This document shows, in pieces, positions 1 through 47,005 of a DNA stretch of 50,886 nucleotides. This stretch comes from a virus. The position numbers were made by a program, and so were the translations under genes. Each line of letters opens with the position of its first letter. Positions within the stretch are counted from its first letter, which is position 1. The notes under the pieces are model-generated. The model had not been told where the DNA came from. It saw only the letters and a program-made list of their open reading frames with translations, and searched no databases. The stretch is taken from the IMG/VR virus record IMGVR_UViG_3300028284_000225, positions 1-50,886 of that record, one strand, 5' to 3'.

Positions 1-753
1 AGCGAACAGTATAAGACTAACCCCCAAGGATTGACTGAGTTGGTGAATAGGTTCTTATCACCCATGACTGAGATCATCATGGATAATCAAGGAACCATCG
101 ACAAGTATATGGGTGACTGTATCATGTGTTTCTGGAATGCTCCTTTAGACGTAGAGCAACAAGAACGACTTGCGGTCTTGACAAGTGAGCAAATGTATGA
201 TAGACTTGATATACTCAACGCCGAGTTAGAGGAAGAAGGGTTATTGCCAATTAACATTGGTGTAGGAATCAACAGTGGATCTGTTGTTGTAGGAAACATG
301 GGAAGTGATCAGAGGTTTGATTACTCTGTGTTAGGAGATGCTGTTAATCTGGCAGCGAGACTTGAAGGACAAACTAAGGAGTATGGTGTGAAGACTATAT
401 TAGGATACGAGACAGCAAAAGAATTAGAGGATGAATTTGCATTACTCGAACTGGATACTATAGCAGTCAAAGGAAAGACTGAACCCGTAAAGATCTATAC
501 CGTGTTGGGAACACATGAGTGGTGGAACGACAATTCCGCATATGCTAATGAAACCCAACAACATGAGAAGATGATGGGTCTATATTACAATCAACAATTC
601 GATCACGCAATTAGATTCTGCGAAGATCTCAAACCCTGTTTTCTGGGTACTATGACGGACTTCTATACCAAATGGATAGACCGTTGTAATGAAATGAAGG
701 AAGCAGGACTATCAAAAGATTGGGACGGTGTATACCGTGCTACCACCAAATAG
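1..753 (+). CDS. Class III adenylate/guanylate cyclase catalytic domain, 5' end outside window
   Basis: The frame is open from base 1, so the N-terminus lies upstream; 250 codons are visible. It should convert ATP (or GTP) to a cyclic nucleotide. Residue numbers count from the first codon. The segment TIDKYMGD contains Lys35, which aligns with the adenine-selecting lysine of adenylate cyclases, and metal-binding Asp39. NLAAR supplies transition-state residues Asn116 and Arg120. The motif FDYSVLGDAVN and the C-terminal VKGKTEPVKIY are typical of bacterial cyclases. The first metal-binding Asp would lie outside the window. No disabling change is visible. Family is secure; substrate (ATP favoured over GTP) and any upstream sensor domain are not. 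Confidence 0.88.
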   Translation, partial: SEQYKTNPQGLTELVNRFLSPMTEIIMDNQGTIDKYMGDCIMCFWNAPLDVEQQERLAVLTSEQMYDRLDILNAELEEEGLLPINIGVGINSGSVVVGNMGSDQRFDYSVLGDAVNLAARLEGQTKEYGVKTILGYETAKELEDEFALLELDTIAVKGKTEPVKIYTVLGTHEWWNDNSAYANETQQHEKMMGLYYNQQFDHAIRFCEDLKPCFLGTMTDFYTKWIDRCNEMKEAGLSKDWDGVYRATTK

Positions 754-10515: not shown

Positions 10516-11190
10516 ATGTTTAATCACATACCTGTAGAGTTACAGGAAATGAATGCTGTTACTACCGACACTGGTCGGAAGTACATGACACCCGAAGGTG
10601 TGAACCTACCTTCAATCACTACTGTACTGTCTATCCTATCACGGGATTCCATTGCTAAATGGAGGAAACGTGTCGGTGAAGAGGTTGCTAATCAAATCTC
10701 TACCCGTGCATCTGGACGTGGTACTCGTGTTCACGAGATCATCGAGAAGTACATCGACAATGATCCAAACTTCAAAGACGGGTACACTCCCGATATCATT
10801 CAATCGTTTCTGGCAGTCCAGAACATTCTGGATGATCGTATCGGTAATGTGTATGCTCAAGAAGCACCATTGTACTCTAACCATCTTGGTGTCGCAGGTC
10901 GTGTTGACTGTGTGGCAGACTTTGATGGCAAACGTTCTATCATTGACTTTAAGACTTCCATGAAACCAAAGAAACTTGATTGGATCAAGAACTACTTCAT
11001 GCAAGAGTCTGCCTACGCAATCATGTGGGAAGAACGTACTGGTCAACCGATTACTCAATTGGTTACCATCATATCAGTTGATAATGCGGATCCTCAAGTG
11101 TTTGTTGAGCACCGTGACAACTGGGTGCGTCCATTACGAGACACTATTAAACAATACGAAGAGGAAAATTCTACTTCACTTTTTGTATAA
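10516..11190 (+). CDS. PD-(D/E)XK exonuclease, RecB/Cas4-like, 224 aa
   Basis: The motifs run in order: GRGTRVHEIIEKY, GVAGRVDCVADF, SIIDFKTSMKP and MQESAYAIMW. These are the H...GxxD...(I)DFKT...QxxAY core of RecB-like nucleases, with catalytic Asp, Asp and Lys all present. It should cut or resect DNA using a metal ion, for recombination or host-DNA degradation. Early promoter upstream; its stop codon overlaps a late promoter for the following block. Confidence 0.85.
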   Translation: MFNHIPVELQEMNAVTTDTGRKYMTPEGVNLPSITTVLSILSRDSIAKWRKRVGEEVANQISTRASGRGTRVHEIIEKYIDNDPNFKDGYTPDIIQSFLAVQNILDDRIGNVYAQEAPLYSNHLGVAGRVDCVADFDGKRSIIDFKTSMKPKKLDWIKNYFMQESAYAIMWEERTGQPITQLVTIISVDNADPQVFVEHRDNWVRPLRDTIKQYEEENSTSLFV

Positions 11191-11193
11191 ATA
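11186..11193 (+). promoter_or_regulatory. T4-type late promoter TATAAATA
   Basis: Exact octamer overlapping the nuclease stop codon, 37 bases before the ATG at 11230, the usual late-promoter geometry. It is the natural start of a late transcript through the 11230-17736 block. Confidence 0.72.
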
Positions 11194-11229: not shown

Positions 11230-12285
11230 ATGGCATATGACATTATTCCTACATCTGTAGATGCAATCGATAAGATTAAGCATCTTGACGATGCACAAAA
11301 AGCAAAATTGAAAGATTTGTATAAAGAGATCGGTGGCAAGGATCCTATAGCACTATCCCCAAAATCCAGTGAGAAAGGTCTAAAGATTGTAAGAGCAATT
11401 GCAATTGATTTAGATCTACCTGCACTTAGTTCCAAGTATGGTTTCAAACTCACAGCAGGAAATGGTTCTCGTGGTGGTGGTGGAAATAAATCTAAAGGGT
11501 TTGAGTTCGAACACCAGATCGTTAATGATCTCGATATGTATAGAGCAGAAGGTATAGACTCACCCAACTTTAAGTTCCCCAACATGATCAAGAAGATGCA
11601 CAACGAATTCTTGAAAGATGCCAAGAACATTATCATCAAACTGGACGGTACTGCCAATACCAAACGTCCGTTAGTGTTTGGTGATGCCAAAGCAGTTATT
11701 GGTGGACGTGATCTGAAGATTGGTGATAAGGTGACAGATGTAACCGTTATTACCGACAAGGGTAAGTTCTATCTATCTGCAAAGTTTGGTGGTACTGTAA
11801 CATTCTTTAATGCGGGTGTACGTACTATTCTCACAGGAGATGAGTTCAAAGCAGGGAAGATTACAAACAAAGACGGTAAGAAACTACTGGATATGTTTGG
11901 TATCGAAGAAGATCGAATCATTGATATCTTCAACAAGTATGATCCAAAGAAGAAAAACCCCCGTGGAGAGAAACTCCGAGTACGTCCTCGTAATGCAAAC
12001 AAGAAAGCACTTCAACGTCTACTACTTACAGGTATTGGATATGGTTACTGGATGGTACACCGTAAAGGTAAGAAAGTAGAGTTCTATGAGATGACAGCAG
12101 GACGTATGAAAAAGTCATCTACAATCAAAAGTATTGAGATCTTGTATCCAAAACCAGGCGATGCTAAACGTATCGACATCGAAGTAATCACCCCCCTATA
12201 CATCTTCAAATTCAATATACGTAATAAGCAAGGTGGACTATATCCATCTCATATTATGTGTGACTACAAACCGAATCCGAACTAA
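11230..12285 (+). CDS. Hypothetical lysine-rich protein, 351 aa, first gene of late block
   Basis: Not recognised. An N-terminal helical part (DAIDKIKHLDDAQKAKLK) is followed by a Gly/Ser-rich hinge and a large mixed alpha/beta part with many Lys and Arg residues. The stretch KFYLSAKFGG resembles the catalytic-lysine strand of restriction-like nucleases, but no full active site could be placed. Being first behind a late promoter and ahead of capsid-targeting-like genes, a virion or packaged role is inferred. Confidence 0.78.
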   Translation: MAYDIIPTSVDAIDKIKHLDDAQKAKLKDLYKEIGGKDPIALSPKSSEKGLKIVRAIAIDLDLPALSSKYGFKLTAGNGSRGGGGNKSKGFEFEHQIVNDLDMYRAEGIDSPNFKFPNMIKKMHNEFLKDAKNIIIKLDGTANTKRPLVFGDAKAVIGGRDLKIGDKVTDVTVITDKGKFYLSAKFGGTVTFFNAGVRTILTGDEFKAGKITNKDGKKLLDMFGIEEDRIIDIFNKYDPKKKNPRGEKLRVRPRNANKKALQRLLLTGIGYGYWMVHRKGKKVEFYEMTAGRMKKSSTIKSIEILYPKPGDAKRIDIEVITPLYIFKFNIRNKQGGLYPSHIMCDYKPNPN

Positions 12286-12286
12286 T

Positions 12287-12736
12287 ATGAAGACATTCAA
12301 CGAATTAATAGAATCTCTAAATAACCCGTATTCTGCTGTGTTAAAGAAAAGTGGAAAGCAGGAGTATCGTTCTACCGTTAAACTTGATGATGGTGGTTCA
12401 CTCAACATAGACATCAAAGGTGATGAGCATATTGATGACTATGATGAACTCGATTGGGAGATTAACTTCCAACGTAATGGTAAACAATCAATGACAGGTG
12501 AAGGTGATGCATTGCGTATCTTGGCAACCGTCTTTAATGTTATCAATCAATTTGTTCGAAAAGAAAAACCCAAGTACATGAGTGCAGCGGCAGGTAAAGA
12601 AAAGGGTAATAAGAAAGTATTACAGGGAAGAGAGAAAGTGTACAAGAGACTTCTAACAAAAAATTTAGGCAGAGCATATAAGATTTCAACTGACACAAGT
12701 AGCAGTGGAACTATGTTCAACATGGTGCGAAAATGA
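12287..12736 (+). CDS. Putative packaged protein with capsid-targeting-like N-terminus, 149 aa
   Basis: The ATG at 12287 is just after the previous stop (TAATATG) and is preferred over the upstream in-frame codon at 12233 because it gives MKTFNELIES. This closely resembles the T4 internal-protein capsid-targeting sequence (MKTYQEFI), with LIE as a possible prohead-protease site. The middle is acidic, the C-terminus strongly basic (KEKGNKKVLQGREKVYKRLL). The role is inferred: a packaged or injected protein of unknown activity. Confidence 0.72.
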   Translation: MKTFNELIESLNNPYSAVLKKSGKQEYRSTVKLDDGGSLNIDIKGDEHIDDYDELDWEINFQRNGKQSMTGEGDALRILATVFNVINQFVRKEKPKYMSAAAGKEKGNKKVLQGREKVYKRLLTKNLGRAYKISTDTSSSGTMFNMVRK

Positions 12737-13941
12737 AATTTGCTGAATACATAACAGAAAATAAGAACACTCACATGACCCATATCGAAGATAAGGTCAT
12801 CTATGGGGGTGTTAACGGAACACGTCAAGCAATCAACGCACTGCGTGAGTTGCGTGATGTACTGGGTGGTAAAGGGAAACCTAAACTATCCACGAAATGG
12901 GATGGGGCACCTGCAATATTTTGCGGTACTGATCCCACAGACGGAAAGTTCTTTGTTGCTAAGAAAGGTATCTTCAACAAGAACGCAAAAGTATATAAGA
13001 CCCCTGCTGATATCGATGACGATACCAAAGGAGATCTTAATGCAAAACTTAAAGACGCATTGAAATACCTTCCCTCTCTGGGAATCAAGGGTGTTATTCA
13101 AGGTGACTTTTTGTTCGGGAAGGGTGACTTATCTAAAAAAACAATTGAAGGTAAGAAGTATATTACGTTTCACCCTAATACCATTGTATATGCTGTTCCT
13201 GTCGAACAAGCAAAGGAATTAACCTCTGCAAAAATCGGCATAGTGTGGCATACTACATATACTGGTAAAACATTTGAAACTATGAAAGCATCCTATGGTG
13301 TCAATGTTAAACAACTAACACGTTCAAAGAACGTATGGTCGCAGGATGCTATGCTCCGCAGTGTGGACGCAACATTGACCGAAAAAGAAACAGGAGAAAT
13401 TAATGAATATCTTACGAAAATTGGTAAACTATTTAACCAGATTGCGGGATCAACTCTTCGGACTCTCGAAGGAGACCAAGACCTCGCAGGACTTATCGAA
13501 ACCTACGGAAACACCAAAGTCCGCAAAGGTCAAGTCCCCGGCGACTCGAAAGCGCACGCCCAAGGTCTCATCAACTGGATCCAAGACAAGTACCAAAAAG
13601 AAATCGACTCCCGCAAAACCGAGAAAGGCAAGAGCACCCAAAAAGGTAAAAGAGACGAAATCTTAAAGTTCTTTAGTCCGCAAAACCGAGCATCTTTAAT
13701 AAAGATGTTCGAATTGCAGAAATTAATAGTTTTGGCAAAGTTAAAACTTATAAATAAACTAAACAGTTTAAAGAAAATTGACACATTCGTTAAGACCCGA
13801 CAAGGTTTTAAAGTGACATCCGAAGAAGGATATGTGGCAATTGATAAACTTGGTGGTGATGCGGTGAAACTCGTTGATCGTATGGAATTTTCATACAACA
13901 ACTTTTCACCCGATATACTAAAGGGTTGGGACAAATCCTAA
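12733..13941 (+). CDS. KxDG ligase-like nucleotidyltransferase candidate with capsid-targeting-like N-terminus, 402 aa
   Basis: It starts MKFAEYITEN, a packaging-like signal with ITE at 7-9. Further on, STKWDGAPA (Lys55) matches motif I of DNA/RNA ligases and capping enzymes, where the lysine is adenylylated; VAKKG follows and VIQGDFLF (119-128) may be motif III. The family appears, as far as I recall, as an uncharacterised one in marine T4-like phages. Residues 220-300 are Lys/Ser-rich, the rest helical. It may join or adenylylate nucleic acid, or be a degenerate relative. A second reading frame at 13403 is a shadow. Confidence 0.72.
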   Translation: MKFAEYITENKNTHMTHIEDKVIYGGVNGTRQAINALRELRDVLGGKGKPKLSTKWDGAPAIFCGTDPTDGKFFVAKKGIFNKNAKVYKTPADIDDDTKGDLNAKLKDALKYLPSLGIKGVIQGDFLFGKGDLSKKTIEGKKYITFHPNTIVYAVPVEQAKELTSAKIGIVWHTTYTGKTFETMKASYGVNVKQLTRSKNVWSQDAMLRSVDATLTEKETGEINEYLTKIGKLFNQIAGSTLRTLEGDQDLAGLIETYGNTKVRKGQVPGDSKAHAQGLINWIQDKYQKEIDSRKTEKGKSTQKGKRDEILKFFSPQNRASLIKMFELQKLIVLAKLKLINKLNSLKKIDTFVKTRQGFKVTSEEGYVAIDKLGGDAVKLVDRMEFSYNNFSPDILKGWDKS

Positions 13942-13977
13942 TCATATATTAAATGGGGCAAACCAAAGGGGTAAACA

Positions 13978-14430
13978 GTGGAAAAGAAACCACTTAGATT
14001 TAAAGATTTTGATACGGTCGATTACACAGGGACGGGTGACGAAGAACTCGCATCCAAAGCATCCAGACGTAAGAAGATCGATAACGAAGAAGTACAAGAC
14101 GAGGCATTGTCAATGACTCAACGTCTTGCACGTGGCAGACAAATGAAGAAGTTGAAGTCCAAGATTGCTATCGGACGGAAACGTGCTATGCGAAAAACTG
14201 CCAACATGGATACCCTCAAGAAACGTGCACGAAAAGCGGCACGTAATGTCGTACTCAAAAAACTTATCAAGAACACCCCCAAAGCAGATTTGTCTATGGC
14301 ACGTAGACAAGACCTAGAAAAACGTCTAGAGAAAAAGAAAGCAGTAATCGATAAGTTGTCTAAGAAATTATTACCCCAAGTCCGTAAGAAAGAAATGCTC
14401 CGAAAGAAAGGTGGTAATAAATCACAATGA
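13978..14430 (+). CDS. Very basic putative virion or packaged protein, 150 aa
   Basis: GTG start after AAAGGGG. An N-terminal LRFKDFDTV is followed by arginine/lysine-rich helices (RRKKID, KSKIAIGRKRAMRK, RARKAARNVVLKK) and a coiled segment ending KLLPQVRKKEML. Composition suggests DNA binding inside the head. Similar proteins occur, from memory, beside nucleotidyltransferase genes in marine myoviruses. Ends in an ATGA overlap with the next gene. Confidence 0.72.
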   Translation: MEKKPLRFKDFDTVDYTGTGDEELASKASRRKKIDNEEVQDEALSMTQRLARGRQMKKLKSKIAIGRKRAMRKTANMDTLKKRARKAARNVVLKKLIKNTPKADLSMARRQDLEKRLEKKKAVIDKLSKKLLPQVRKKEMLRKKGGNKSQ

Positions 14431-16151
14431 GTATAAAAAACTTTTCACAATATCTACGTGAAGAAAAGGGTGAAGTATATTTCACTTTTGGACGCATGAA
14501 TCCCCCGACTATTGGACACGGTAAGGTTATGGATAACCTTGCTAAGAAGTCTGGTAAGTACGATTATAAAGTTTACATGTCTCAGAAGACTGGGGCAAAG
14601 GATCCGTTATCCTATAAGGATAAGGTTAAGCACATCCGTAAGATGTACCCGAAACATGCACGTTCTGTTATCATGGATCCCAAGATAAAGAATGTGTTTG
14701 ATGTCGCTGCTCAACTATATGATCAAGGTTATACTTCGGTCTGTATGGTTGTTGGTGATGACCGTCTACGTGAGTTCACTGTTCTACTTGAGAAGTACAA
14801 CGGTGTCAAAGCACGTCACGGATTCTACAAGTTTAAATCAATCAAAGTAATATCAGCAGGTCAAAGAGATCCAGATGCTGAAGGTGTGGAAGGAATGTCT
14901 GCATCTAAGCAACGTTCATTTGCCAAAAGCAATGACTACCAGTCATTCACTCAAGGTGTGCCACGTAATTACTCGGACAAGGATACAAGGAAATTATTCA
15001 ATGATGTCCGCAAGGGTATGGGTCTCAAGGAAGAGACTCAATTTAAGAATCACATTGCATTACCTGTTGTTTCAGAAACAAGAGAACAGTATATTCAAGG
15101 AGAACTATATGCGGTCGGTGATGAAGTCATTATCAAAGAAAGTGATGAATTGGTTACGGTCAGTGTACTCGGATCAAATTACGTTATCGTTGAACGTGCG
15201 GACGGCACTCGACTACGCAAATGGTTGGAGTCAGTCGAACTCGTTGAACGACAAGACGCAGATATCAAAGACCGAAAAGGAACCCAACCTGCCAGATACC
15301 ACAAAGGATTAGAGAAGTCTACTAAGGTAAAGAGAGACGCACACTTCAAGAAGCATGGGAAGAAAGCAGACGATGATGAATCTGCATACAAACCTGCACC
15401 AGGCGACAAAACTGCCAAGACCAAACCGTCTAAATACACCAAACAGTTCAAGGATATGTACGAGGAAGTATCTCCAAAGCAGTTAAATGATCTTGAGAAG
15501 TTTGCGGATAGATTACTTGCAAAGTTCAAGGTTGATATTGAATTCACACGTCACTTTGCGGATCGTATGAACGATGACCGTAACAAACCTGCTATTACTG
15601 TAGCAGAACTGCAACGTGTATTCAAGAAGATTGCCAAGAACAAAGCAAAGAACATTAGACAGAATCCAGATAGTGAAGCAGTCATTAAAGACTTGCAGAT
15701 GGATCTTAATTTACCCGTAGTTATTAACTACAACCGTAACAAAGACGAGTTCGAAGTTGTTAACAAAACAATAATGCGTAAGAAGAACTTCAAGACATCA
15801 TCTAAAACAATCACTACAGAAGGTAGAATGTTAGACAAGTTAAAGTCGTTGACTACTAATAAGAAGCAGTATCAACACGCATTGAAGACTTTAAAGGATC
15901 TTATTGCTCGTAAGAAGAAAGAGGGTGGTGGTAAGTTGAGACATGGTACACACTACTATGCACAACAGATTGCTAAGACTTATAATGGCATGGACGATAG
16001 AGCACTTCATTCTTTATTAGGTGAAGATGCCGTTGCCACTGCACAAGATAAAATCTCTCGTGAAAAGGAAGCAGATAAGAAGAAACATGATCGTATTCTT
16101 GATCGTGCAAGATTGGCACGAACAAGGACAAAAAACAGGGAAACCGAATGA
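14427..16151 (+). CDS. TxGH nucleotidyltransferase polyprotein with capsid-targeting-like N-terminus, 574 aa
   Basis: Residues 1-13 (NFSQYLREE) resemble a packaging signal. Residues 17-165 form a cytidylyltransferase/NMNAT-type domain: FGRMNPPTIGHG (T28, G30, H31) and SASKQR (158-163), standing for the ISSTxxR motif. Residues 215-275 look like a small beta domain (YAVGDEVIIKESDELVTV). Residues 345-455 contain HFADRMNDDRN, a conserved phage domain. Residues 461-465 read TITTE before GRM, a possible prohead-protease cut site. It may be processed into several mature proteins; the transferred nucleotide is unknown. Confidence 0.75.
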   Translation: MSIKNFSQYLREEKGEVYFTFGRMNPPTIGHGKVMDNLAKKSGKYDYKVYMSQKTGAKDPLSYKDKVKHIRKMYPKHARSVIMDPKIKNVFDVAAQLYDQGYTSVCMVVGDDRLREFTVLLEKYNGVKARHGFYKFKSIKVISAGQRDPDAEGVEGMSASKQRSFAKSNDYQSFTQGVPRNYSDKDTRKLFNDVRKGMGLKEETQFKNHIALPVVSETREQYIQGELYAVGDEVIIKESDELVTVSVLGSNYVIVERADGTRLRKWLESVELVERQDADIKDRKGTQPARYHKGLEKSTKVKRDAHFKKHGKKADDDESAYKPAPGDKTAKTKPSKYTKQFKDMYEEVSPKQLNDLEKFADRLLAKFKVDIEFTRHFADRMNDDRNKPAITVAELQRVFKKIAKNKAKNIRQNPDSEAVIKDLQMDLNLPVVINYNRNKDEFEVVNKTIMRKKNFKTSSKTITTEGRMLDKLKSLTTNKKQYQHALKTLKDLIARKKKEGGGKLRHGTHYYAQQIAKTYNGMDDRALHSLLGEDAVATAQDKISREKEADKKKHDRILDRARLARTRTKNRETE

Positions 16152-16414
16152 TTAATTTTAAAAAATACTTAGAAGAAGGCAGGTACTCCAACTACGATAT
16201 CATCGAGAAAGAAGGAGAAGGTCTTGCAGGTAAGTCTAAGAAATCTGGTATCTCTGTAGACACATTAAAAAAAGTTTATAACCGTGGAGTCGCCGCATGG
16301 AAAACAGGACATCGGCCTGGCACCACTCCTCAACAATGGGGTTACGCAAGAGTTAACGCATTTATCGTTAAGAAGAAAAAGGGTAACCTAAATCACGATA
16401 AGGATCTTGCATGA
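16148..16414 (+). CDS. Small marine-phage protein of DUF5824 type with packaging-like N-terminus, 88 aa
   Basis: MINFKKYLEEG is the packaging-like start with a possible LEE cut. The core has TGHRPGTTPQQWGYARVNAF and a basic tail, a pattern I recall from the DUF5824 family in cyanophages and other marine phages (name not verified). Function unknown. ATGA overlaps on both sides place it inside the coupled late block. Confidence 0.75.
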   Translation: MINFKKYLEEGRYSNYDIIEKEGEGLAGKSKKSGISVDTLKKVYNRGVAAWKTGHRPGTTPQQWGYARVNAFIVKKKKGNLNHDKDLA

Positions 16415-17286
16415 AAAAGTTTAATGAAATTAGAGCACCTAAGATTAAAAAAGGTCTTAGAGATAAGAAGGGTAAATTACATACTGTCGATATGAAACTC
16501 GATGGTAGTAAGTTGTCATTTAGAGTTACCGATGAGTTTGGTTCATTCAAAACCGTCAATGCAAAAGGTCTTGCAAAGATGTTTGAAGGCACTGACGTTG
16601 ACAAGTTTATCGAAGAAGGTTCGTTTTGGGGACAAGATAAGATGGTTGCCAAATCAAAGAAATTGATGGGGCCGAAGACTCATGTCAGATTGACAAGAGA
16701 AAAGGGTGGATACGAAAGAGCGACAGTCTCTAAGAAAGATAAAAAGAAAATCGCACAACTAAAAAAAGACGGGTATAAAATAGACCCTACGTTTGCTAAG
16801 GAAGAGATCGAAGAAGCACGTAAACCTGTATCTCAAATGACTCCTGCTGAGAAGAAGAAGGATGCTGAAAGACGTAAAGAGTACAACGCATACCAGAAAA
16901 GTAAACGTAACGAAGATGTCGTTGACGAAGCAATGAATCCCAAGGACAAAGCAAAACGTCTAAAGATGATCAAGAAAGCAGTTGAGAGAATCAACAAGAA
17001 CAATGCTGAGAAAGCAAAGAAAGATGCACTCAGAATGATGAAGGACTCTGGGATGTTTGATGAGTCTGTAGAGATCACTGAGGGTAAGCAATCTTACGTA
17101 GATCAAATGCGTGATATTGTTGCAAAGAAATCAGCAAAGAAGATTAACGGTGTAATGGTAGATATGTTTACAGCATCTGCCGTAGTAAAAGTCTATGATG
17201 CCATAAACGACACCAACAAGGCAAAGATGGATAAAATGACTGTCCCTGCCATGGCAAACGTAGCATTCAAATTAATGAAAAAGTAA
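16411..17286 (+). CDS. Lysine-rich protein with internal protease-like site, 291 aa
   Basis: It begins MKKFNEIRAP, a packaging-like start. The first 220 residues are low in hydrophobics and very rich in Lys and Glu. At 222-224 is ITE before GKQSYV, resembling a prohead-protease site, after which the C-terminal 67 residues (DQMRDIVAKKSAKKINGVMV and on) look like a compact conserved domain. The N-terminal portion may therefore be a removable propeptide. No activity assigned. Confidence 0.72.
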   Translation: MKKFNEIRAPKIKKGLRDKKGKLHTVDMKLDGSKLSFRVTDEFGSFKTVNAKGLAKMFEGTDVDKFIEEGSFWGQDKMVAKSKKLMGPKTHVRLTREKGGYERATVSKKDKKKIAQLKKDGYKIDPTFAKEEIEEARKPVSQMTPAEKKKDAERRKEYNAYQKSKRNEDVVDEAMNPKDKAKRLKMIKKAVERINKNNAEKAKKDALRMMKDSGMFDESVEITEGKQSYVDQMRDIVAKKSAKKINGVMVDMFTASAVVKVYDAINDTNKAKMDKMTVPAMANVAFKLMKK

Positions 17287-17300
17287 TACAGGAGTAAAGA

Positions 17301-17381
17301 TTGATTGATAGAATTTGGAGAAAGTTCTCCCACATGATGAAACGTAATAGAATTCAACGAGTATGGAACAAGGTACTATAA
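17301..17381 (+). CDS. Possible basic micropeptide, 26 aa
   Basis: A TTG follows CAGGAG at 17290-17294 at good spacing. The product is basic and aromatic. It fills the only gap between the packaged-protein genes. Support is the ribosome site alone. Confidence 0.3.
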   Translation: MIDRIWRKFSHMMKRNRIQRVWNKVL

Positions 17382-17385
17382 AAGA

Positions 17386-17736
17386 ATGAAAAAATTTAAC
17401 GACTACAACGAGATAGATGCACATTGCGAATGCAATGATCTATTTGAGGACTTGGTGATAACTGAGTCAGAATACCAAGGTAAGAAGGTGAAACTTAATG
17501 ATCCTATTCGCACGTCCGAGAACCCTAATAAGAAGTTCAAGGTATATGTGAAGAACGACCAAGGTAACGTTGTAGTCGTACGTTTCGGAGATCCGAAGAT
17601 GTCAATTAAACGAGATGACCCAAAACGTAGGGCATCTTTCAGAGCACGACACGACTGTGCAAACCCAGGCCCAAAGCACAAAGCAAGGTACTGGAGTTGT
17701 TATCAGTGGCGTGGTAGTGCTAAAGTAGACAATTAA
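17386..17736 (+). CDS. Putative packaged protein, 116 aa, DUF6321-like core
   Basis: MKKFNDYNEID is a packaging-like start. LVITE at 23-27 is followed by SEYQGKK, a plausible prohead-protease cut. The remaining 89 residues form a conserved marine-phage domain with KLNDPIRTSENPNKKFKVY, RFGDPKMSIKRDDPKRR and RYWSCYQWR, which I recall as DUF6321-like (not verified). The segment CANPG...C could bind metal. Function unknown; probably capsid-associated. Confidence 0.75.
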   Translation: MKKFNDYNEIDAHCECNDLFEDLVITESEYQGKKVKLNDPIRTSENPNKKFKVYVKNDQGNVVVVRFGDPKMSIKRDDPKRRASFRARHDCANPGPKHKARYWSCYQWRGSAKVDN

Positions 17737-18058: not shown

Positions 18059-18769
18059 ATGACTGATTTAAGTAAAACAATGGAGGCATATTTGTCAATG
18101 GTCTCCGAAACAGCAGACCTCGATGAAGGTATGACTAAAGCACAAGCAGCGGGAGCACGTAACCGTGGTGAGTCTAAGTTAGACCCTGTCGATGACAAAG
18201 CAAACGATAAGAAATTCAAGGATCGTAAAGACAAGGACATCGATAATGATGGAGATGTAGATTCTTCGGACGAATTCCTGCACAAGAGACGCAAGGCAAT
18301 CGACAACGAGAAAGACGGTGGAGAGAAACCTGCTAAGAACGAAAAGGTCAAAGCAAAAGAAGGTGAGACCGAAGCAGAGAAGGATGAGAAGGAAGCAGAT
18401 TCAGTTGAAGCAGATGGTGAGACTGAAGATAAACCTAAAGTAGATCCTAAGAAGAAGAAGAAGTTACCTAATAAAGATGACGGTGACGATACTCCAGAGA
18501 TTTCTAAGATCGGTGAAGCATCTGCTGAGTTCATTAAAGACCTCGAAGATCTTCTTGAGAAGATGAAAGCAGGTACTGAACCAGAAAAGATTGACAGTAA
18601 AGAATCCCCTAAGTCTAAGGAATTCATTGCTAAACATAAAATCGACAAGATGGATCATGAGGATATGGAGAAAGTTCTCCCCCCGAAAGAACCTAAGTTG
18701 AAAAAAGAGATGAATGAGTTCGAAGTTATTCGTGCCCTTTTATCTGGTAAACCATTAGACGGAGAATAA
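18059..18769 (+). CDS. Acidic/lysine-rich protein with EF-hand-like loop, possible prohead component, 236 aa
   Basis: ATG at 18059 has AAGGAGA 10 bases upstream. Residues 60-71 (DIDNDGDVDSSD) match a calcium-binding EF-hand/dockerin loop with Asp at positions 1, 3, 5, 7, 9 and 12. The middle is low-complexity Lys/Glu/Asp; the C-terminus is helical. Highly charged low-complexity proteins with such loops occur in marine T4-like prohead regions. VSETADLDE before G may be a cleavage site. Function inferred only. Confidence 0.7.
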   Translation: MTDLSKTMEAYLSMVSETADLDEGMTKAQAAGARNRGESKLDPVDDKANDKKFKDRKDKDIDNDGDVDSSDEFLHKRRKAIDNEKDGGEKPAKNEKVKAKEGETEAEKDEKEADSVEADGETEDKPKVDPKKKKKLPNKDDGDDTPEISKIGEASAEFIKDLEDLLEKMKAGTEPEKIDSKESPKSKEFIAKHKIDKMDHEDMEKVLPPKEPKLKKEMNEFEVIRALLSGKPLDGE

Positions 18770-23329: not shown

Positions 23330-23940
23330 GTGAATTACTAACCACACAAATGAAGTTCGATGAGATCATGAAGGATGTCAAAGGAAACTTCAGAGGAGAG
23401 GACGAACCAGAAGGGCATCCACTACTAGGTGGTGTTTACGATAAGATTGTTCAAGCAACTTCCCGAAAATGCCAACCACTCCAGATGATGGAAATTGGAA
23501 TGAATGCCGGTCATTCTGTAGTCGCATATCTAAATAACTGTCCAGACCTTGTAGTACACGCAATTGATATATGTGAACACCCATATGTAAAAGATTGTGC
23601 AGAAGCACTCGAAGCAGAGTATGGTGACAGATTTCAGTTTGGTCAGTGTGACTCACAAACTGTCAATAAGGATAGTCTGATCGGATATGATCTTGTACGC
23701 ATCGATGGTGGTCATCATATTGCTAATGTTACCAGTGACTACGATAAGTGTAAGGTAAGTGGTGTTAAGTACATCATCTTCGATGATTTGGAAATGGTTC
23801 AGATACGGCAGTTAGTTGATCATATAGTTAAAAGTCCTAACCATCCATACAAACATGTTGGTAGATCTACGTATCCTAATAGTGATGGTGGTAACTCAAC
23901 TCAGATAGTTTTAGAGAGGTATGACGATGTTACGGTTTAA
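23326..23940 (+). CDS. Class I SAM-dependent methyltransferase, 204 aa
   Basis: LQMMEIGMNAGHSVVAYL is motif I (ExGxxxGxS) of the Methyltransf_24 type, and VRIDGGHHIANVTSDYDKC with YIIFDDLEM supplies further acidic and GGHH features typical of that subgroup, often metal-dependent. Substrate may be a sugar, lipid or small molecule. Overlaps the next gene slightly. Confidence 0.75.
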   Translation: MSELLTTQMKFDEIMKDVKGNFRGEDEPEGHPLLGGVYDKIVQATSRKCQPLQMMEIGMNAGHSVVAYLNNCPDLVVHAIDICEHPYVKDCAEALEAEYGDRFQFGQCDSQTVNKDSLIGYDLVRIDGGHHIANVTSDYDKCKVSGVKYIIFDDLEMVQIRQLVDHIVKSPNHPYKHVGRSTYPNSDGGNSTQIVLERYDDVTV

Positions 23941-24232
23941 AGAATACAAAGGATGGAAAGGGGTTGGATTCGAACCTCATATGATGTATGATCCTAAGAC
24001 GGGCAAAGGTTACAAAGCACTGAAACCCGCAGATCATGAACGCATGAAGAAGATGGGTTACACTCACGACAAACCAAAAGACGTGGTGGATGAGGAAATG
24101 ACATCGACTGGATCCGTAGTAGGAACAGGTGATGATAACCAAACAGTGGTCATGCGTAAGAAGTATGACAAGAAGAACAAACGTAAAGATCAGATAGACG
24201 TACTCAAACGTTTTATTGCGAAACAAAAGTAA
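23927..24232 (+). CDS. Small basic protein with packaging-like N-terminus, 101 aa
   Basis: AGAGAGG at about 23913 is 8 bases from the ATG at 23927 but only 2 from the ATG at 23921, so 23927 is chosen, giving MLRFKEYKGWKG, similar to the packaging-like signals of 12287-17386. The body is Lys-rich with an acidic patch VVDEEM. Packaging is inferred; no late promoter directly precedes it. TAATG overlap with the IscU-like gene. Confidence 0.68.
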   Translation: MLRFKEYKGWKGVGFEPHMMYDPKTGKGYKALKPADHERMKKMGYTHDKPKDVVDEEMTSTGSVVGTGDDNQTVVMRKKYDKKNKRKDQIDVLKRFIAKQK

Positions 24233-24681
24233 TGCCATACTCGCAGAAAGTCATCGATAGATTTGAAGCAGTTGTTGCTAATCCTCAGAAGCATTCGGTA
24301 GGTAGATTAGACCGAAATGATCCCAAGGTTGCGACAGGACTTGCGGGTGCCCCTGCATGTGGTGATGTCATGCAACTACAACTATTATTAGACGATGATG
24401 ATAGAATCATTGATGTTAAGTTTAAGACCTATGGATGTGGAAGTGCAATTGCATCTTCGTCATTGTTCGTAGATATGATGATGGGTAAGACTGTCGAAGA
24501 GGCAAAACTCATCAAAGACAAAGACATTGCGGAGGTATTAGATTTACCCCCAATCAAACTACATTGCAGTGTATTAGCAGAAGATGCTATCAGACAAGCA
24601 ATGGTAGACTATGAGACAAAGCAAGAAGAAGGTTACTCTCATCCTATCTTAGATGCGGATAAAAAAGATGGAACTGACTGA
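24232..24681 (+). CDS. iscU: IscU/NifU-type Fe-S cluster scaffold, 149 aa
   Basis: GAPACGDVMQL (C43, D45), YGCGSAIASSS (C69) and LHCSVLAEDAI (C112) are the three cluster-ligand motifs of IscU in the normal order; D45 fits the labile-cluster Asp. It would assemble [2Fe-2S] clusters and pass them on. The length is a little longer than bacterial IscU because of an acidic C-terminal tail. It is followed by an A-type carrier and, soon after, by ribonucleotide reductase. Confidence 0.9.
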   Translation: MPYSQKVIDRFEAVVANPQKHSVGRLDRNDPKVATGLAGAPACGDVMQLQLLLDDDDRIIDVKFKTYGCGSAIASSSLFVDMMMGKTVEEAKLIKDKDIAEVLDLPPIKLHCSVLAEDAIRQAMVDYETKQEEGYSHPILDADKKDGTD

Positions 24682-24985
24682 TACTGCCATAGTCCATGCC
24701 ACCAAAAGAACGGGTGGTGAAAATCCTCAGTTCATTAGAGTTGGTGTTACTGGTGGTGGATGTGTTGGGTACGAATACTATATAGAGTATGCAACAGAAA
24801 TTGCCAACAGTGATAAGATTACTGACTATGGACAATTCAAAGTGGTCGTGGATATAGACTCGCAACCATTCTTAGAAGAAGCAACATTAGACTATACCAA
24901 AGAAGGAATCAACGAGTTCTTCAAGATAGTCAACCCCAAAGAGACAGCAACCTGTGGATGTGGAGTTTCTATAGGTTTTGCTTGA
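24668..24985 (+). CDS. iscA: A-type Fe-S carrier (IscA/HesB-like), 105 aa
   Basis: Starting at 24668 gives MELTDTAIVHATK, as in IscA; 24653 is an alternative. Ligand cysteines are C32 in GGGCVGY, with C96 and C98 in CGCGVSIGF. That is the A-type carrier pattern, with a Val where Ser is usual after the first Cys. It would take clusters from the IscU-like scaffold to client proteins. Overlaps the scaffold gene. Confidence 0.85.
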   Translation: MELTDTAIVHATKRTGGENPQFIRVGVTGGGCVGYEYYIEYATEIANSDKITDYGQFKVVVDIDSQPFLEEATLDYTKEGINEFFKIVNPKETATCGCGVSIGFA

Positions 24986-36504: not shown

Positions 36505-36551
36505 GATAAGAATCCCATATATACTTACATAACTATTATGTGAGGTATACT

Positions 36552-37910
36552 ATGAGATATGTTGGAGTTAGTGAGAATTATCACGATGCCGCCTTATCAG
36601 TTATCGAAGATGGAGTGGTGACCTTTGCGTCTCACTCCGAACGATACTCTAAAAAGAAAAACGACAAAATAATTCATCCGTCCTTGTGGGAAGCAAGTTG
36701 CAAAGATCTACCATCTTTTGATAGGGATCATATGCACATGGCATTCTACGAGCATTCGGATGATCCTAAGTACGACTCAACCTTTAACCATCATAAGTCG
36801 CATTGTGCGACTGCATTCTACACACGTCCATGGGATGATCGTGACACAACAGTCATGGTCTCTATTGATGGTGTAGGTGAAAAACAATCTGCTGTTATTC
36901 TTGACAGCAACTTCAATCTAATCAAAGAATACCTCGCACCAAAATCAGTTGGATTAGTCTACACAACATGTACGGTTCAATTGGGTTTACGTCCACTTGA
37001 GGATGAATATGTTGTTATGGGTCTAAGTTCATACGGCACTGCCGTACCCGATATTGTAGACTGGTTAACTCAGTGGTGGGAAGCAGAGGGTGCAAACTCC
37101 GACATGAAGAACATGATGCAGTCGTGGGTAGAGCAATACGATGATGCAGATGTTGCGTCATCTGTTCAAGCATTTGCACAATACGGTATTATGCAGATTA
37201 TGCATGAAGCACGTAAGCACGGATCCAAACTTGTATATGGTGGTGGGTGTGCTCAGAACGTGGTTATCAATACTCTTCTATGGGACGTATTCGATGACGT
37301 ACACATCTCTATATCACCAACAGACGCAGGATCGTCTCTGGGGTGCGCTGGGTACGCACAGGAGGTCGCTACAGGCATTGATAAACTTATCTGGACTCCT
37401 TATAGGGGGTATGACATACAGAAGAAAATTAATCCATCCGAAGTAGTAGATCACTTGTTATCAAAAAAAGTATGTGGTATTGCCAATGGTAAAGCAGAGT
37501 TCGGCCCTCGTGCATTGGGTAATAGATCTCTGATTGCAGATGTAAGGTATGATGTAAAGGACACAGTCAACACAATTAAGCAGAGACAGAAGTACAGACC
37601 GTTTGCTCCTGCAATCCTCGAAGAGTTTGTTGACGAATACTTTGAGGGTGTGACTAATGAATACATGCAGTTCACATGTAAAGCAAAGCATGATTACTCA
37701 TCCGTAACACACGTAGACGGGACTGCCCGTGTACAGGTAGTAAAGAAAGACTGTGAGTCAGTATTCCGTAAAGTGATAGAAGAGTACTATGAGAAGACAG
37801 GTGTTCCTATGCTACTTAATACTTCACTAAATATTCGAGGTAGACCAATGGTTAATGATCATCATGATGCACATCTGTGGGAACAGAAATATGGGGTAAA
37901 GGTATTCTAA
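36552..37910 (+). CDS. Carbamoyltransferase, NodU/CmcH/TobZ type, 452 aa
   Basis: ATG at 36552 (GAGG upstream) rather than GTG 36540. The N-terminal ASKHA-like domain begins MRYVGVSENYHDAALS with NHHKSHCATAFY; the C-terminal part has AEFGPRALGNRS and RPFAPAILEEF, the family signature. Such enzymes put a carbamoyl group from carbamoyl phosphate on a hydroxyl of a sugar or antibiotic via a carbamoyl-adenylate. Target likely a phage or host glycan. TAATG-coupled to the oxygenase. Confidence 0.85.
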   Translation: MRYVGVSENYHDAALSVIEDGVVTFASHSERYSKKKNDKIIHPSLWEASCKDLPSFDRDHMHMAFYEHSDDPKYDSTFNHHKSHCATAFYTRPWDDRDTTVMVSIDGVGEKQSAVILDSNFNLIKEYLAPKSVGLVYTTCTVQLGLRPLEDEYVVMGLSSYGTAVPDIVDWLTQWWEAEGANSDMKNMMQSWVEQYDDADVASSVQAFAQYGIMQIMHEARKHGSKLVYGGGCAQNVVINTLLWDVFDDVHISISPTDAGSSLGCAGYAQEVATGIDKLIWTPYRGYDIQKKINPSEVVDHLLSKKVCGIANGKAEFGPRALGNRSLIADVRYDVKDTVNTIKQRQKYRPFAPAILEEFVDEYFEGVTNEYMQFTCKAKHDYSSVTHVDGTARVQVVKKDCESVFRKVIEEYYEKTGVPMLLNTSLNIRGRPMVNDHHDAHLWEQKYGVKVF

Positions 37911-38797: not shown

Positions 38798-39675
38798 TGG
38801 AACCAGAACTCATTACTTGGCGTGGTACGCCGGGAGTCGGTGATTTTATGTGGGCACTTAACTCTGCCCACAATTTCTGTTGGGCAGAAAAAACTACTGC
38901 CATCTTGGAAATGCACTGGGAACATGGTGAGGATTACATACATCATCCAGATGAGGAAGAGACCATTATAGAACGAATGGCATTCATACATAATTTCTAT
39001 CACAGGAAAGATGATGTGGAGGTGGTTCACGTCTTCAATGCCGACAGTAGGTACAAACACTGGAAGTATGCAGACGATATCATTAAAGACGAAGATGGTA
39101 ATGCAAGACAAGTAGCAAAGAATTCGCATGGAGAAAAGGCAAGGTTCTATTTCGATAGTGGTAAGTATTCAGATGAGATAGGTGGAAAGATACCAGACAA
39201 CAACTGGGTGTTCCGTGATGACATTGTTCATCCTCGTAAGCAAAACAAGATAGTTATCTGGAGACCAACCTTCAATGCAGAAATACCAAGAACTTGGAAA
39301 AGAGGGTTGACAAATAACGAATGGGATGATATAATAAGTATGTTGCGTGGGCAGGGATTCAATGTAGTTGAACTCACCTATAGAACACCAGTATCAGAAG
39401 CATTCTATGAGATATCTACATGTAGATTAGTATTATGTTATGATGGTATGTGGCATTATATAGCAAGAAACTTTAGTATACCTATGATAGTTATAAGTAA
39501 AGATGGAGTAACTAAGTATCACACACCACACGCAATAACGGCATCTGGTCTAAAAGAAGATAATTATAACATTTGGTGGTACCTAAAAGACATAGGAGAG
39601 TTTCTGGGAATACCACGAAAATACGCAATAGAACATAAACATCGGAGTAAGAAATATTATGAAGTCAGAGATTAA
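38797..39675 (+). CDS. GT9-like glycosyltransferase (heptosyltransferase-type), 292 aa
   Basis: Overlaps the previous gene by one base. ITWRGTPGVGDFMWAL resembles the N-terminal PGxGDF of GT9/GT-B. The late strand VLCYDGMWHYIARNFSIPM stands for the donor-binding DxxxxHxA region. It probably moves a nucleotide sugar. No active-site confirmation by eye. Overlaps the radical SAM gene by 17 bases. Confidence 0.6.
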   Translation: MEPELITWRGTPGVGDFMWALNSAHNFCWAEKTTAILEMHWEHGEDYIHHPDEEETIIERMAFIHNFYHRKDDVEVVHVFNADSRYKHWKYADDIIKDEDGNARQVAKNSHGEKARFYFDSGKYSDEIGGKIPDNNWVFRDDIVHPRKQNKIVIWRPTFNAEIPRTWKRGLTNNEWDDIISMLRGQGFNVVELTYRTPVSEAFYEISTCRLVLCYDGMWHYIARNFSIPMIVISKDGVTKYHTPHAITASGLKEDNYNIWWYLKDIGEFLGIPRKYAIEHKHRSKKYYEVRD

Positions 39676-40642
39676 AATTGACAGAGCAGTCATAGAGATA
39701 CAGGGTGCCTGTAATTTCGATTGTACTATGTGTCCGCAAGACAAAAGGACTGGAGGAAGACATAAGGGTTTCCTTCGTAAGATGAATTTACTCGAATTCG
39801 AAGATAACGTTGCCGACTGTAAACAGCATGGAATGAATGTAGTGAATCTGGATGGATCTGGAGAAGCAACATTAAATAACAACCTACCAGAATACATTAA
39901 GATCGTTAAGAAGTATGATGCAATGTCAGTTATCTTCTCTAATGGTTTCCGTATGCATGGTCAATACATGAAAGATTGTGTTGATGCAGGATTAGACTTC
40001 TTTAGGTTCTCGTTCATTGGCCCTACACCAGAACTGTATGATAAGTGGATGAACAACAAACGTGGATCTTCTTATCACCTAATTAAGAAACACGTAAAAG
40101 AGATGATGGATTACGTTAAAGAAACAGGATCGAATTGTGTTGTAGAAACATACCACCTTATTACAGACAACGATAATCTTGAGCAAGAACTGGAGCAGTA
40201 CAAAGCATTAGTAGACGAACTGGGTTGTAAGACCGAGATCTGGAAGATGCATAACTGGTCTGGTGCGTATGACATTGGAGAGACAAATGCACGTAAGGGT
40301 GAGACCAAATCATGTGGTAGACCTTTCTCTCCAGACGTAGTAATACGTGCAGGTGGATTAGACGGCAAACATGGTGCAGTCCATCCGTGTTGTCAAGTAC
40401 TTGGTAGAGATGAAGAAGCAGTACTTGGTCACACATCCGAGAACACTATCGAAGAAATCATTAGGGGTGAGGAGTACTCTGCATTGAGACAATCACATAG
40501 GGATAAGACCTATACAGATTATTGCAGAGATTGTGATTTTTTACTTGACGCACCCGAAACTTTAGTGTATACTAATAACAATCGTGCAGAACAAAAAATG
40601 CTCGGCACGTCATTCTCATTGGAGGATTACAGAGATGTATAA
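39659..40642 (+). CDS. Radical SAM enzyme with SPASM-like C-terminus, 327 aa
   Basis: GACNFDCTMC (C18, C22, C25) is the CxxxCxxC site for the [4Fe-4S] cluster and SAM cleavage; DGSGEAT is the GGE-like SAM-binding motif. The C-terminal half has CGRPF, HPCCQ and CRDC, cysteines for auxiliary clusters as in SPASM enzymes. It probably modifies a peptide, sugar or other substrate by radical chemistry. The IscU/IscA-like proteins could supply clusters. Target unknown. Confidence 0.82.
   Translation: MKSEIKIDRAVIEIQGACNFDCTMCPQDKRTGGRHKGFLRKMNLLEFEDNVADCKQHGMNVVNLDGSGEATLNNNLPEYIKIVKKYDAMSVIFSNGFRMHGQYMKDCVDAGLDFFRFSFIGPTPELYDKWMNNKRGSSYHLIKKHVKEMMDYVKETGSNCVVETYHLITDNDNLEQELEQYKALVDELGCKTEIWKMHNWSGAYDIGETNARKGETKSCGRPFSPDVVIRAGGLDGKHGAVHPCCQVLGRDEEAVLGHTSENTIEEIIRGEEYSALRQSHRDKTYTDYCRDCDFLLDAPETLVYTNNNRAEQKMLGTSFSLEDYRDV
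40545..40573 (+). promoter_or_regulatory. Possible internal early-type promoter
   Basis: TTGACG (40545-40550), 17 bp, TATACT (40568-40573), inside the last part of the radical SAM gene and ahead of 40635. Lacks the conserved flanks of the other early promoters. Confidence 0.35.
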
Positions 40643-45910: not shown

Positions 45911-46095
45911 TGAAAATATTAGATAAAATCAAATCAATCACATGGGAAGATGTAAGAGACTCAGCAATAGATGTCCTTACATGGTTTTACGAGGAAGTGC
46001 TGTTGACCTGTAAAGATATTAAGAGTACGCATATGGTTTACCCAAGGGTAATTTATACTGCATTAGTCTTAATCTTGATTGCTCTATTTGTATAA
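45910..46095 (+). CDS. Small C-terminally anchored membrane protein, 61 aa
   Basis: TAATG overlap with the previous gene. Amphipathic N-terminus, hydrophobic C-terminal helix (VIYTALVLILIALFV). The stop codon lies in the TATAAATA late promoter of the next gene. No motif recognised. Confidence 0.65.
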   Translation: MKILDKIKSITWEDVRDSAIDVLTWFYEEVLLTCKDIKSTHMVYPRVIYTALVLILIALFV

Positions 46096-46098
46096 ATA
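46091..46098 (+). promoter_or_regulatory. T4-type late promoter TATAAATA
   Basis: Exact octamer overlapping the stop of the 45910 gene, 35 bases before the ATG at 46133. Same geometry as at 11186. Confidence 0.72.
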
Positions 46099-46132: not shown

Positions 46133-47005
46133 ATGAAGAAGTTCAACCATTTTATAACAGAACAAGAACTAATGCAGAATACTGCCGAAGACTTGATGGA
46201 GAAACTCATCACGTTCGGTGGTAAAGCATATCCTAAGTTCGGTAACATTGTCGTAATGGCAGGTGGTGCAGGATCTGGTAAAGGTTTTGTTCTTAACAAG
46301 TTGGTTGGTGTGGAAGGAAAGGTGTTTGACGTTGACGAGTTGAAGAGACTTGCATCTAAGACACCTGCTATTAAAAAGAGAGTACAGAAAGAACTTGGTG
46401 TTGATATCGAAGCACTTGGTAAAGATCTAAAGAATCCAGATAACGTATCTAAATTACACGACATTATTGCAAACTTTCTTGGAGCAGATAAAGGTAAGGA
46501 ACGTATGTTCTACCGTTCTGTTCTCACGTCACCTGCTGATCGTAAACCAAACATCATCTTTGATATGACCTTTAAAGAGTTAGGTAAACTTGAGAAGGTT
46601 GCCAATGATGCATCTAAGTTAGGTTACGACAAGAAGAACATCCATATCGTATGGGTAGTGAACGACATCGAAGTTGCAAAAGCACAGAATGCTAAACGTG
46701 CACGTAGAGTTCCTTCAGAGATCCTAATCAACACACACCGTGGTGCCGCTAATACCATGGGTGATATTATCAACATGGGTAATAAACTCAAGAAGTATAT
46801 GGATGGGGATATCGTATTCGCATTCAACAAGGTTGGTGTTGATGCTAACCTTGCAACATCTGGTAAGGGTGGTTCGTATGTTAAAGATGCGAATTACTTC
46901 TACGTCAAGAAGCAGGGCAAAGCACCTACTTCTGTCGATCAGTTAGATAAAGATATCAGACGTAAAATTAAGGGTTATGTACCTAAGAACGTAGACTGGG
47001 ATTAA
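46133..47005 (+). CDS. Zeta-toxin-like P-loop kinase with capsid-targeting-like N-terminus, 290 aa
   Basis: MKKFNHFITEQ is a packaging-like start with ITE at 8-10 as a possible prohead-protease site. The core has GGAGSGKG (44-51, Walker A), NIIFDMTFKE (Walker-B-like) and later Arg/Lys residues (NAKRARRVPSE), as in zeta-toxin/PezT-like kinases, which phosphorylate UDP-sugars. It has its own late promoter and no antitoxin gene beside it. A capsid-packaged kinase acting on early host metabolism is the inference. Confidence 0.72.
   Translation: MKKFNHFITEQELMQNTAEDLMEKLITFGGKAYPKFGNIVVMAGGAGSGKGFVLNKLVGVEGKVFDVDELKRLASKTPAIKKRVQKELGVDIEALGKDLKNPDNVSKLHDIIANFLGADKGKERMFYRSVLTSPADRKPNIIFDMTFKELGKLEKVANDASKLGYDKKNIHIVWVVNDIEVAKAQNAKRARRVPSEILINTHRGAANTMGDIINMGNKLKKYMDGDIVFAFNKVGVDANLATSGKGGSYVKDANYFYVKKQGKAPTSVDQLDKDIRRKIKGYVPKNVDWD

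What the first reader, a model, noticed from the sequence alone, without database searches (positions are those of the whole stretch)
12287..17736. A family of capsid-targeting-like N-termini marks a set of putative packaged and injected proteins
Separate genes start MKTFNELIES (12287), MKFAEYITEN (12733), NFSQYLREE (14427), MINFKKYLEEG (16148), MKKFNEIRA (16411), MKKFNDYNEI (17386); 23927 (MLRFKEYKG) and 46133 (MKKFNHFITEQ) repeat the theme far away. T4 internal proteins use MKTYQEFI as a capsid-targeting sequence that the prohead protease removes. The bodies are unrelated (ligase-like, nucleotidyltransferase, kinase, basic proteins), so a shared N-terminus implies a shared sorting signal. 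This would be a modular injected-effector system.
Basis: partly seen in the sequence, partly recalled or inferred. Interest (0 to 1): 0.9.

Follow-up and report, generated by a model that had tools for sequence, protein, structure and literature searches.

The report
Packaging tags on marine phage enzymes
Several unrelated proteins of a marine T4-like phage begin with the same short, apparently removable address label that T4 uses to load proteins into its head, and relatives of one of them have been found in purified phage particles, so this phage group probably carries enzymes into the cell with its DNA.

Summary
The shared N-terminus is real. Six genes (12287, 12733, 14427, 16148, 17386, 46133) carry it far above chance when scored with a matrix trained only on the other families (0-3 of 1812 internal-Met controls); 16411 and 23927 are weaker. 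The bodies are unrelated. The same matrix, trained only on marine families, picks T4's own internal proteins I, II and III. The tag fits a T4-type capsid-targeting sequence ending in a prohead-protease site ([LI]-x-E). Homologues without the tag start almost exactly where the predicted cut falls. Published mass spectrometry of four cyanophage virions detects the homologue of 14427, and all four have the tag; two untagged DUF6267 homologues in the same phages are not listed. The cluster and the distant kinase gene 46133 each follow a T4-type late promoter (TATAAATA). The window is a fragment without the protease gene, but 10 of 12 large relatives have it. Packaging is well supported by inference; cleavage, injection and effector function are untested. 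It is a marine variant of the known T4 internal-protein system, not described in the papers searched, and it would explain virion enzymes that proteomics authors could not tell from contaminants.

The parts
11186..11193 (+). T4-type late promoter core TATAAATA, 36 nt before the first gene of the cluster
   Evidence: 12 sites in the window against 3.7 expected; distance; in relative C48C1 the same motif lies 21-77 nt before head and tail genes
11230..12285 (+). First gene of the cluster (phrog_8438), untagged here; some relatives with a gene in this slot are tagged (MQRFKQFIGE, MLRFKQHVEM)
12287..12736 (+). Tagged small protein; tag MKTFNELIE|S (codons 1-9)
   Evidence: leave-family-out 3/1812; weak DUF6934 match below cut-off
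12733..13941 (+). DUF6267 protein with invariant K-x-D-G motif; tag MKFAEYITE|N (codons 1-9)
   Evidence: PF19782 6.7e-103; alignment A1 with E9 at least 90% conserved; AlphaFold residues 1-15 pLDDT <50
13978..14430 (+). Very basic protein in the cluster; no clear tag here (MEKKPLRFKDFDTVDY), tagged in relative C48C1 (MLSFKQFVSEV)
14427..16151 (+). Cytidylyltransferase/NMNAT-like protein plus N-terminal part of DUF5824; tag MSIKNFSQYLRE|E (codons 1-12)
   Evidence: phrog_3041 4.5e-67; homologues found in virions of four cyanophages; alignment A4: F6 invariant, L10 and E12 at least 90%
16148..16414 (+). DUF5824 C-terminal domain; tag MINFKKYLEE|G (codons 1-10)
   Evidence: PF19141 2.6e-20; leave-family-out 0/1812
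16411..17286 (+). Basic protein with weaker tag MKKFNEIRA; relatives read MKxFxx[IL]RE
   Evidence: leave-family-out 14/1812
17386..17736 (+). DUF5754 protein; 27-residue extension MKKFNDYNEI...LVITE|SEYQGK that is absent in phages without the protease
23921..24232 (+). Small protein with weak tag-like start MLRFKEYKG (from 23927)
   Evidence: 7/1812
46091..46098 (+). T4-type late promoter core 34 nt before the kinase gene
46133..47005 (+). Zeta-toxin/polynucleotide-kinase-like P-loop protein; tag MKKFNHFITE|Q (codons 1-10)
   Evidence: PF06414 2.4e-07; Foldseek AvrRxo1 E 1.1e-5 and bacterial PNK E 1.3e-4; leave-family-out 0/1812; AlphaFold residues 1-31 pLDDT <50

Best explanation
These genes encode head cargo of a T4-like phage. 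Each protein carries an N-terminal capsid-targeting sequence of about 9-12 residues (F-x-x-[FY]-[IL]-x-E; about 27 residues in the DUF5754 protein). Made late, under TATAAATA promoters, the proteins would be drawn by this tag into the scaffold core of the prohead. The gp21-type prohead protease would then cut after the glutamate, leaving the folded enzyme inside the head with the DNA, to be ejected into the next host. Shown here: the tag, its independence of the body, its match to T4 internal proteins, its occurrence on virion-detected proteins of relatives, protease genes in relatives, and the fit of untagged homologues to the predicted cut. Inferred: core binding, cleavage, ejection, and an early role in the host (NAD or nucleic-acid chemistry).
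For: Leave-family-out scores 0-3/1812 for six genes. With the cytidylyltransferase family left out of training, the matrix scores T4 ipI, ipII, ipIII at 2, 0, 0 of 1812 and the four virion-detected cytidylyltransferases at 0, 0, 0, 2. Those four are S-CREM2 gp154 MKNFSSFLTEA, S-SCSM1 91 MKSFLQFLKEA, S-SZBM1 140 MRFRQFIIEA and S-SM1 190 MKKFSAFLNEA (PMC10665884, PMC9602691, PMC9146016, PMC3037559). In S-CREM2 7 of 28 virion proteins not classed as structural pass the 1% threshold against 8 of 167 undetected genes (P 0.0017; 0.0058 without gp154); SAM hydrolase, kinase, Cas9-like protein and gp13 read MKDFDSFLEE, MKRFDAFLTEE, LRFASFMAEA, MKDLHSFLTEQ. Untagged DUF5754 proteins in phages without gp21 start MAKYQGRTV or MATYKGKSV, where the window reads ITE|SEYQGKKV. 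Untagged cyanophage DUF6267 starts M[SA]KNTHLEHLED against ITE|NKNTHMTHIED. Anchor residues are fixed while their codons vary. Major capsid proteins of C48C1, S-CREM2, S-SCSM1 carry FLTE|T, LLTE|A, FLAE|A. gp21 in 10 of 12 large relatives. Late promoters.
Against: No gp21 in the window itself, which is a fragment. No new N-terminus has been measured for any of these proteins. Virion detection covers only the 14427 family directly, and the S-CREM2 authors say co-purification is possible. Some tagged genes were not reported as virion proteins (S-SCSM1 gp30 MKTFKQFMSE), and some virion proteins in the same clusters have no tag (S-SCSM1 90, 93; S-SZBM1 139). Many cyanophage homologues of DUF6267 lack the tag in T4-like phages that have the protease. 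Retrieval used some N-terminal peptides as search patterns, which favours tagged homologues.
Confidence: 0.82

Rival explanations
1. The tag does place the proteins in the prohead core, but they work there as assembly or DNA-condensing components and are not effectors delivered to the host.
For: Two of the cluster proteins are very basic (13978, 16411); DUF5824 and DUF5754 have no known enzymatic role.
Against: Several cargo types look like enzymes with conserved active-site motifs: nucleotidyltransferase G-R-x-N-P-P-T-x-G-H, K-x-D-G, P-loop kinase, and an ADP-ribosyltransferase-like protein in a relative. Cargo sets differ between phages, as accessory cargo would.
Confidence: 0.2
2. The N-terminus is a binding helix for some intracellular partner (for example it assembles these enzymes into one complex during infection) and has nothing to do with the head.
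For: Packaging has not been tested for the window phage; AlphaFold leaves the N-termini of the two modelled proteins poorly resolved, as any peptide ligand would be.
Against: The T4 internal proteins score with the same matrix, virion-detected homologues carry it, and the conserved end [LI]-x-E fits prohead-protease sites.
Confidence: 0.08
3. The resemblance is chance, or an AT-rich start that helps translation initiation.
For: Starts such as ATG AAA AAA TTT AAC are AT-rich.
Against: Leave-family-out 0-3 of 1812 for six genes. At the fixed leucine of the 14427 family all six codons occur, and both glutamate codons occur at the fixed glutamate, so the protein sequence is what is kept.
Confidence: 0.02

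Closest known systems
T4 internal proteins IPI, IPII, IPIII and Alt with their capsid-targeting sequence, processed by gp21 (Mullaney and Black 1996; reviewed in PMC3012670)
   Same: Short N-terminal tag with an aromatic-x-x-aromatic-[IL]-x-E core on otherwise unrelated proteins; T4-like phages with gp21; a matrix from marine families recognises T4 ipI-ipIII.
   Different: Cargo here is mostly enzyme-like and lies largely in one contiguous late cluster; bodies are not T4 internal proteins; one family has a propeptide of about 27 residues; tags are more degenerate; domains are shuffled and fused between phages.
Virion-associated regulatory proteins of cyanophages (cytidylyltransferase/NMNAT, SAM hydrolase, APH/ChoK-like kinase, Cas9-like protein in S-CREM2, S-SCSM1, S-SZBM1, S-SM1)
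   Same: Homologues of 14427; same N-terminal form; same genome neighbourhood near DUF6267 and ribonucleotide reductase in most.
   Different: The papers read here do not mention a targeting sequence, and two leave open whether the proteins are inside the virion.
Giant phage SPN3US and phiKZ ejection proteins with prohead-protease propeptides (PMC5694885)
   Same: Ejected head proteins with N-terminal propeptides cut after x-x-E by a gp21-related protease.
   Different: Most of those propeptides are over 100 residues long and not of this consensus.

Membership tests
T4 capsid-targeting-sequence cargo (internal proteins) | Short N-terminal sequence of the T4 form shared by otherwise unrelated proteins | tested here: met
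   Six genes at 0-3/1812; no cross-matches between bodies; T4 ipI-ipIII recognised by the same matrix
T4 capsid-targeting-sequence cargo (internal proteins) | Tag ends in a prohead-protease-like site [LI]-x-E | tested here: met
   Met as a sequence motif for 12287, 12733, 14427, 16148, 46133 and, further in, 17386; not for 16411 and 23927
T4 capsid-targeting-sequence cargo (internal proteins) | Phage encodes a gp21-type prohead protease | tested here: inconclusive
   Not in the 50.9 kb fragment; present in C48C1 and six other named phages with these families and in 10 of 12 large related contigs
T4 capsid-targeting-sequence cargo (internal proteins) | Protein is present in the mature virion | tested here: inconclusive
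   Published proteomics of four cyanophages for the 14427 family only; not the window phage
T4 capsid-targeting-sequence cargo (internal proteins) | Propeptide is removed in the virion | not testable with these tools
   Indirect: untagged homologues begin at the predicted cut
T4 capsid-targeting-sequence cargo (internal proteins) | Protein is ejected into the host | not testable with these tools
   No ejection data found
T4 capsid-targeting-sequence cargo (internal proteins) | Made together with late (structural) genes | tested here: met
   TATAAATA 36 nt before the cluster and 34 nt before 46133; motif enriched in the window, and placed before head and tail genes in C48C1; sequence evidence only
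DNA/RNA ligase-type nucleotidyltransferases (for 12733) | K-x-D-G motif and the adenylation-domain fold | tested here: inconclusive
   K55-W-D57-G58 with K, D and G invariant in 22 homologues; Foldseek gives only weak ligase hits, none below E 0.1

The most novel reading that the evidence does not exclude
A degenerate N-terminal head-sorting code marks a large, swappable set of enzymes (NMNAT-like, ligase-like, zeta/PNK-like kinase, ADP-ribosyltransferase, SAM hydrolase, Cas9-like) that marine T4-like phages load into the head and deliver with the DNA, probably to counter host defence or restore NAD and nucleic acids in the first minutes of infection. The code would let injected cargo be predicted from genome sequence across this phage group.
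Probability: 0.5. Interest if true: 0.8.

Novelty: new variant of a known kind. Interest (0 to 1): 0.62.

Why it matters
T4-like phages are among the most abundant in the sea, and proteomics papers have repeatedly found unexplained enzymes in their virions without knowing whether these were contaminants. A readable tag with a predicted cut site turns that into a direct test and gives a way to list candidate injected proteins in thousands of uncultivated phage genomes. It also offers a natural set of tagged enzymes for studying how proteins are loaded into phage heads.

Tried and rejected
A simple pattern alone gave some false hits (48741 MGSYRTMIEHYQ), so I replaced it with a trained matrix and internal-Met controls. 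Chance and AT-rich translation starts were rejected. Shared ancestry of the bodies was rejected. A search for gp21 in the window found none, which says little because the record is a fragment. PDB sequence searches gave nothing useful for DUF6267, the kinase or the nucleotidyltransferase. The DUF6267 fold search gave no significant match. Literature searches for virion detection of the RB43-type zeta kinase and for targeting sequences in marine T4-like phages found none.

Full report
WHAT THE WINDOW IS. The window is a complete 50,886-base IMG/VR record, a linear virus fragment. Its nearest annotated genome is Phage C48C1 (OQ984149, Kyanoviridae, 156 kb), which has the same order: exonuclease, a gene in the phrog_8438 slot, DUF6267, basic protein, cytidylyltransferase, DUF5824 and, further on, DUF5754. 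C48C1 encodes gp21-type protease, scaffold and capsid genes elsewhere.

THE OBSERVATION. The eight N-termini are present at the stated places. I built a matrix of eight positions from N-termini of homologues of seven of these genes and scored each gene with its own family left out. The number of 1812 internal-Met windows scoring as high was 3 for 12287, 0 for 12733, 14427, 16148, 17386 and 46133, 14 for 16411 and 7 for 23927. The bodies do not match one another. The basic gene 13978 has no clear tag here but its C48C1 homologue reads MLSFKQFVSEV.

CONSERVATION. In families collected from IMG/VR the first residues differ in length and sequence but keep F, an aromatic three later, I or L next, and E two after that: MKFAEYITE, MLDFNNYITE, MDNFASYITE, MNFSDFITE for DUF6267; MQSFNTFLKE, MKGFSQYIKE, MLSFKNFITE for the kinase; MINFKKYLEE, MLNFKNYINE, MKFKDYIDE for DUF5824. 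In the cytidylyltransferase alignment F6 is invariant and L10 and E12 are at least 90% conserved. Codons at these positions vary: all six leucine codons occur at L10, and both glutamate codons at E12. Selection acts on the peptide.

LINK TO T4. The same matrix, never shown T4 sequences, scores T4 ipI, ipII and ipIII in the top 0-5 of 1812, against one other hit (e.5) among 24 genes of that T4 region. Reviews state that T-even internal proteins are diverse and share only the targeting sequence (PMC3012670), which gp21 removes (PMC5694885).

LINK TO VIRIONS. Published virion proteomics reports the 14427 homologue in S-CREM2 (PMC10665884), S-SCSM1 (PMC9602691), S-SZBM1 (PMC9146016) and S-SM1 (PMC3037559). 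I read their N-termini: MKNFSSFLTEA, MKSFLQFLKEA, MRFRQFIIEA, MKKFSAFLNEA. With the whole family left out of training they score 0, 0, 0 and 2 of 1812. In S-CREM2 other virion-detected regulatory proteins also read as tagged: SAM hydrolase MKDFDSFLEE, kinase MKRFDAFLTEE, gp13 MKDLHSFLTEQ, gp15 MNFSEFNESL, and the Cas9-like gp12 with LRFASFMAEA from residue 17. Across that genome 7 of 28 virion proteins not classed as structural pass the 1% threshold against 8 of 167 undetected genes (P 0.0017, or 0.0058 leaving out gp154, which had contributed one training row). DUF6267 is untagged in S-SZBM1 and S-CREM2 and is in neither virion table. The S-CREM2 and S-SCSM1 authors could not exclude co-purification.

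A DETACHABLE TAG. DUF5754 proteins in phages without a PF03420 protease (Aegir, CRP-902, HTVC026P) begin MAKYQGRTV, MATYKGKSV, MAKYKGRTV, while the window reads MKKFNDYNEIDAHCECNDLFEDLVITE|SEYQGKKV. Cyanophage DUF6267 begins M[SA]KNTHLEHLED while the window reads MKFAEYITE|NKNTHMTHIED. The untagged cytidylyltransferase of P-HM2 begins MKKVYVTFGR while the window reads LRE|EKGEVYFTFGR. The untagged forms thus begin within a few residues of the predicted cut. Capsid proteins of C48C1, S-CREM2 and S-SCSM1 carry the same kind of site, FLTE|T, LLTE|A, FLAE|A; assigning these as the maturation sites is inference from general knowledge of T4 gp23. AlphaFold leaves residues 1-15 of 12733 and 1-31 of 46133 below pLDDT 50.

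EXPRESSION AND PROTEASE. TATAAATA, the T4 late promoter core (known from T4), occurs 12 times in the window against 3.7 expected, 36 nt before the cluster and 34 nt before the distant kinase gene; in C48C1 it stands 21-77 nt before head and tail genes. A PF03420 protease is found in 10 of 12 large related contigs and in C48C1, S-CREM2, HTVC008M, Melnitz-3, DLP6, RB43 and a Flavobacterium phage.

WHAT THE CARGO MAY DO. 14427 has the nucleotidyltransferase motifs of the cytidylyltransferase/NMNAT class. 12733 has an invariant K-x-D-G and only weak ligase-like fold hits. 46133 is a zeta-toxin-like P-loop protein whose model is nearest AvrRxo1 and bacterial polynucleotide kinase, at low TM-score. 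A relative carries a tagged ADP-ribosyltransferase-like protein, recalling T4 Alt. Restoring NAD or repairing nucleic acids on entry is a guess from these classes. Domains are shuffled: Melnitz fuses cytidylyltransferase, DUF5824 and DUF5754 behind one tag, and IMG/VR loci L215 and L218 fuse cytidylyltransferase and kinase behind one tag.

LIMITS. N-terminal peptides were among the search patterns in three scans, so untagged relatives are under-sampled. Start sites are predicted. Only the 14427 family has virion evidence. Some tagged genes are not reported in virions and some virion proteins of the same clusters are untagged. Nothing here shows cleavage or ejection.

Noticed in passing
window 18059-18769; C48C1 L002:18834-19598; L137:10353-11471; L138:8568-9956: A second recurring N-terminal theme, roughly [IM]xxAYxxM (MTDLSKTMEAYLSMVSE, MSDINKIMEAYLGMVSD, MTRYTKTMAEAYREV), on proteins next to the cargo cluster; virion protein S-SCSM1 92 (MTHLNDISKVYMEKV) is similar. 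It may be another head-sorting signal.
   Followed up: partly
window 31-753: Catalytic domain of a class III adenylate/guanylate cyclase (PF00211, E 1.4e-12), cut by the left end of the record; unusual in a phage.
   Followed up: partly
window, 12 sites: TATAAATA late-promoter cores are enriched about threefold and could be used to map late operons in uncultivated T4-like phages.
   Followed up: partly
S-CREM2 OR473000 7704-13331 (locus L006): A separate block of virion-detected genes (Cas9-like nuclease, small proteins, APH/ChoK-like kinase) with tag-like starts, apparently a second cargo island.
   Followed up: partly
L077:1811-2248: Tagged ADP-ribosyltransferase-like protein (ART-PolyVal, E 5.7e-06, just below the curated cut-off) in a related marine contig.
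   Followed up: partly
window 24232-24985: NifU-like iron-sulphur scaffold gene (PF01592) followed by a small protein that looks like an A-type iron-sulphur carrier.
   Followed up: no
window 39659-40642: Radical SAM/SPASM protein downstream of a carbamoyltransferase gene (36540-37910).
   Followed up: no
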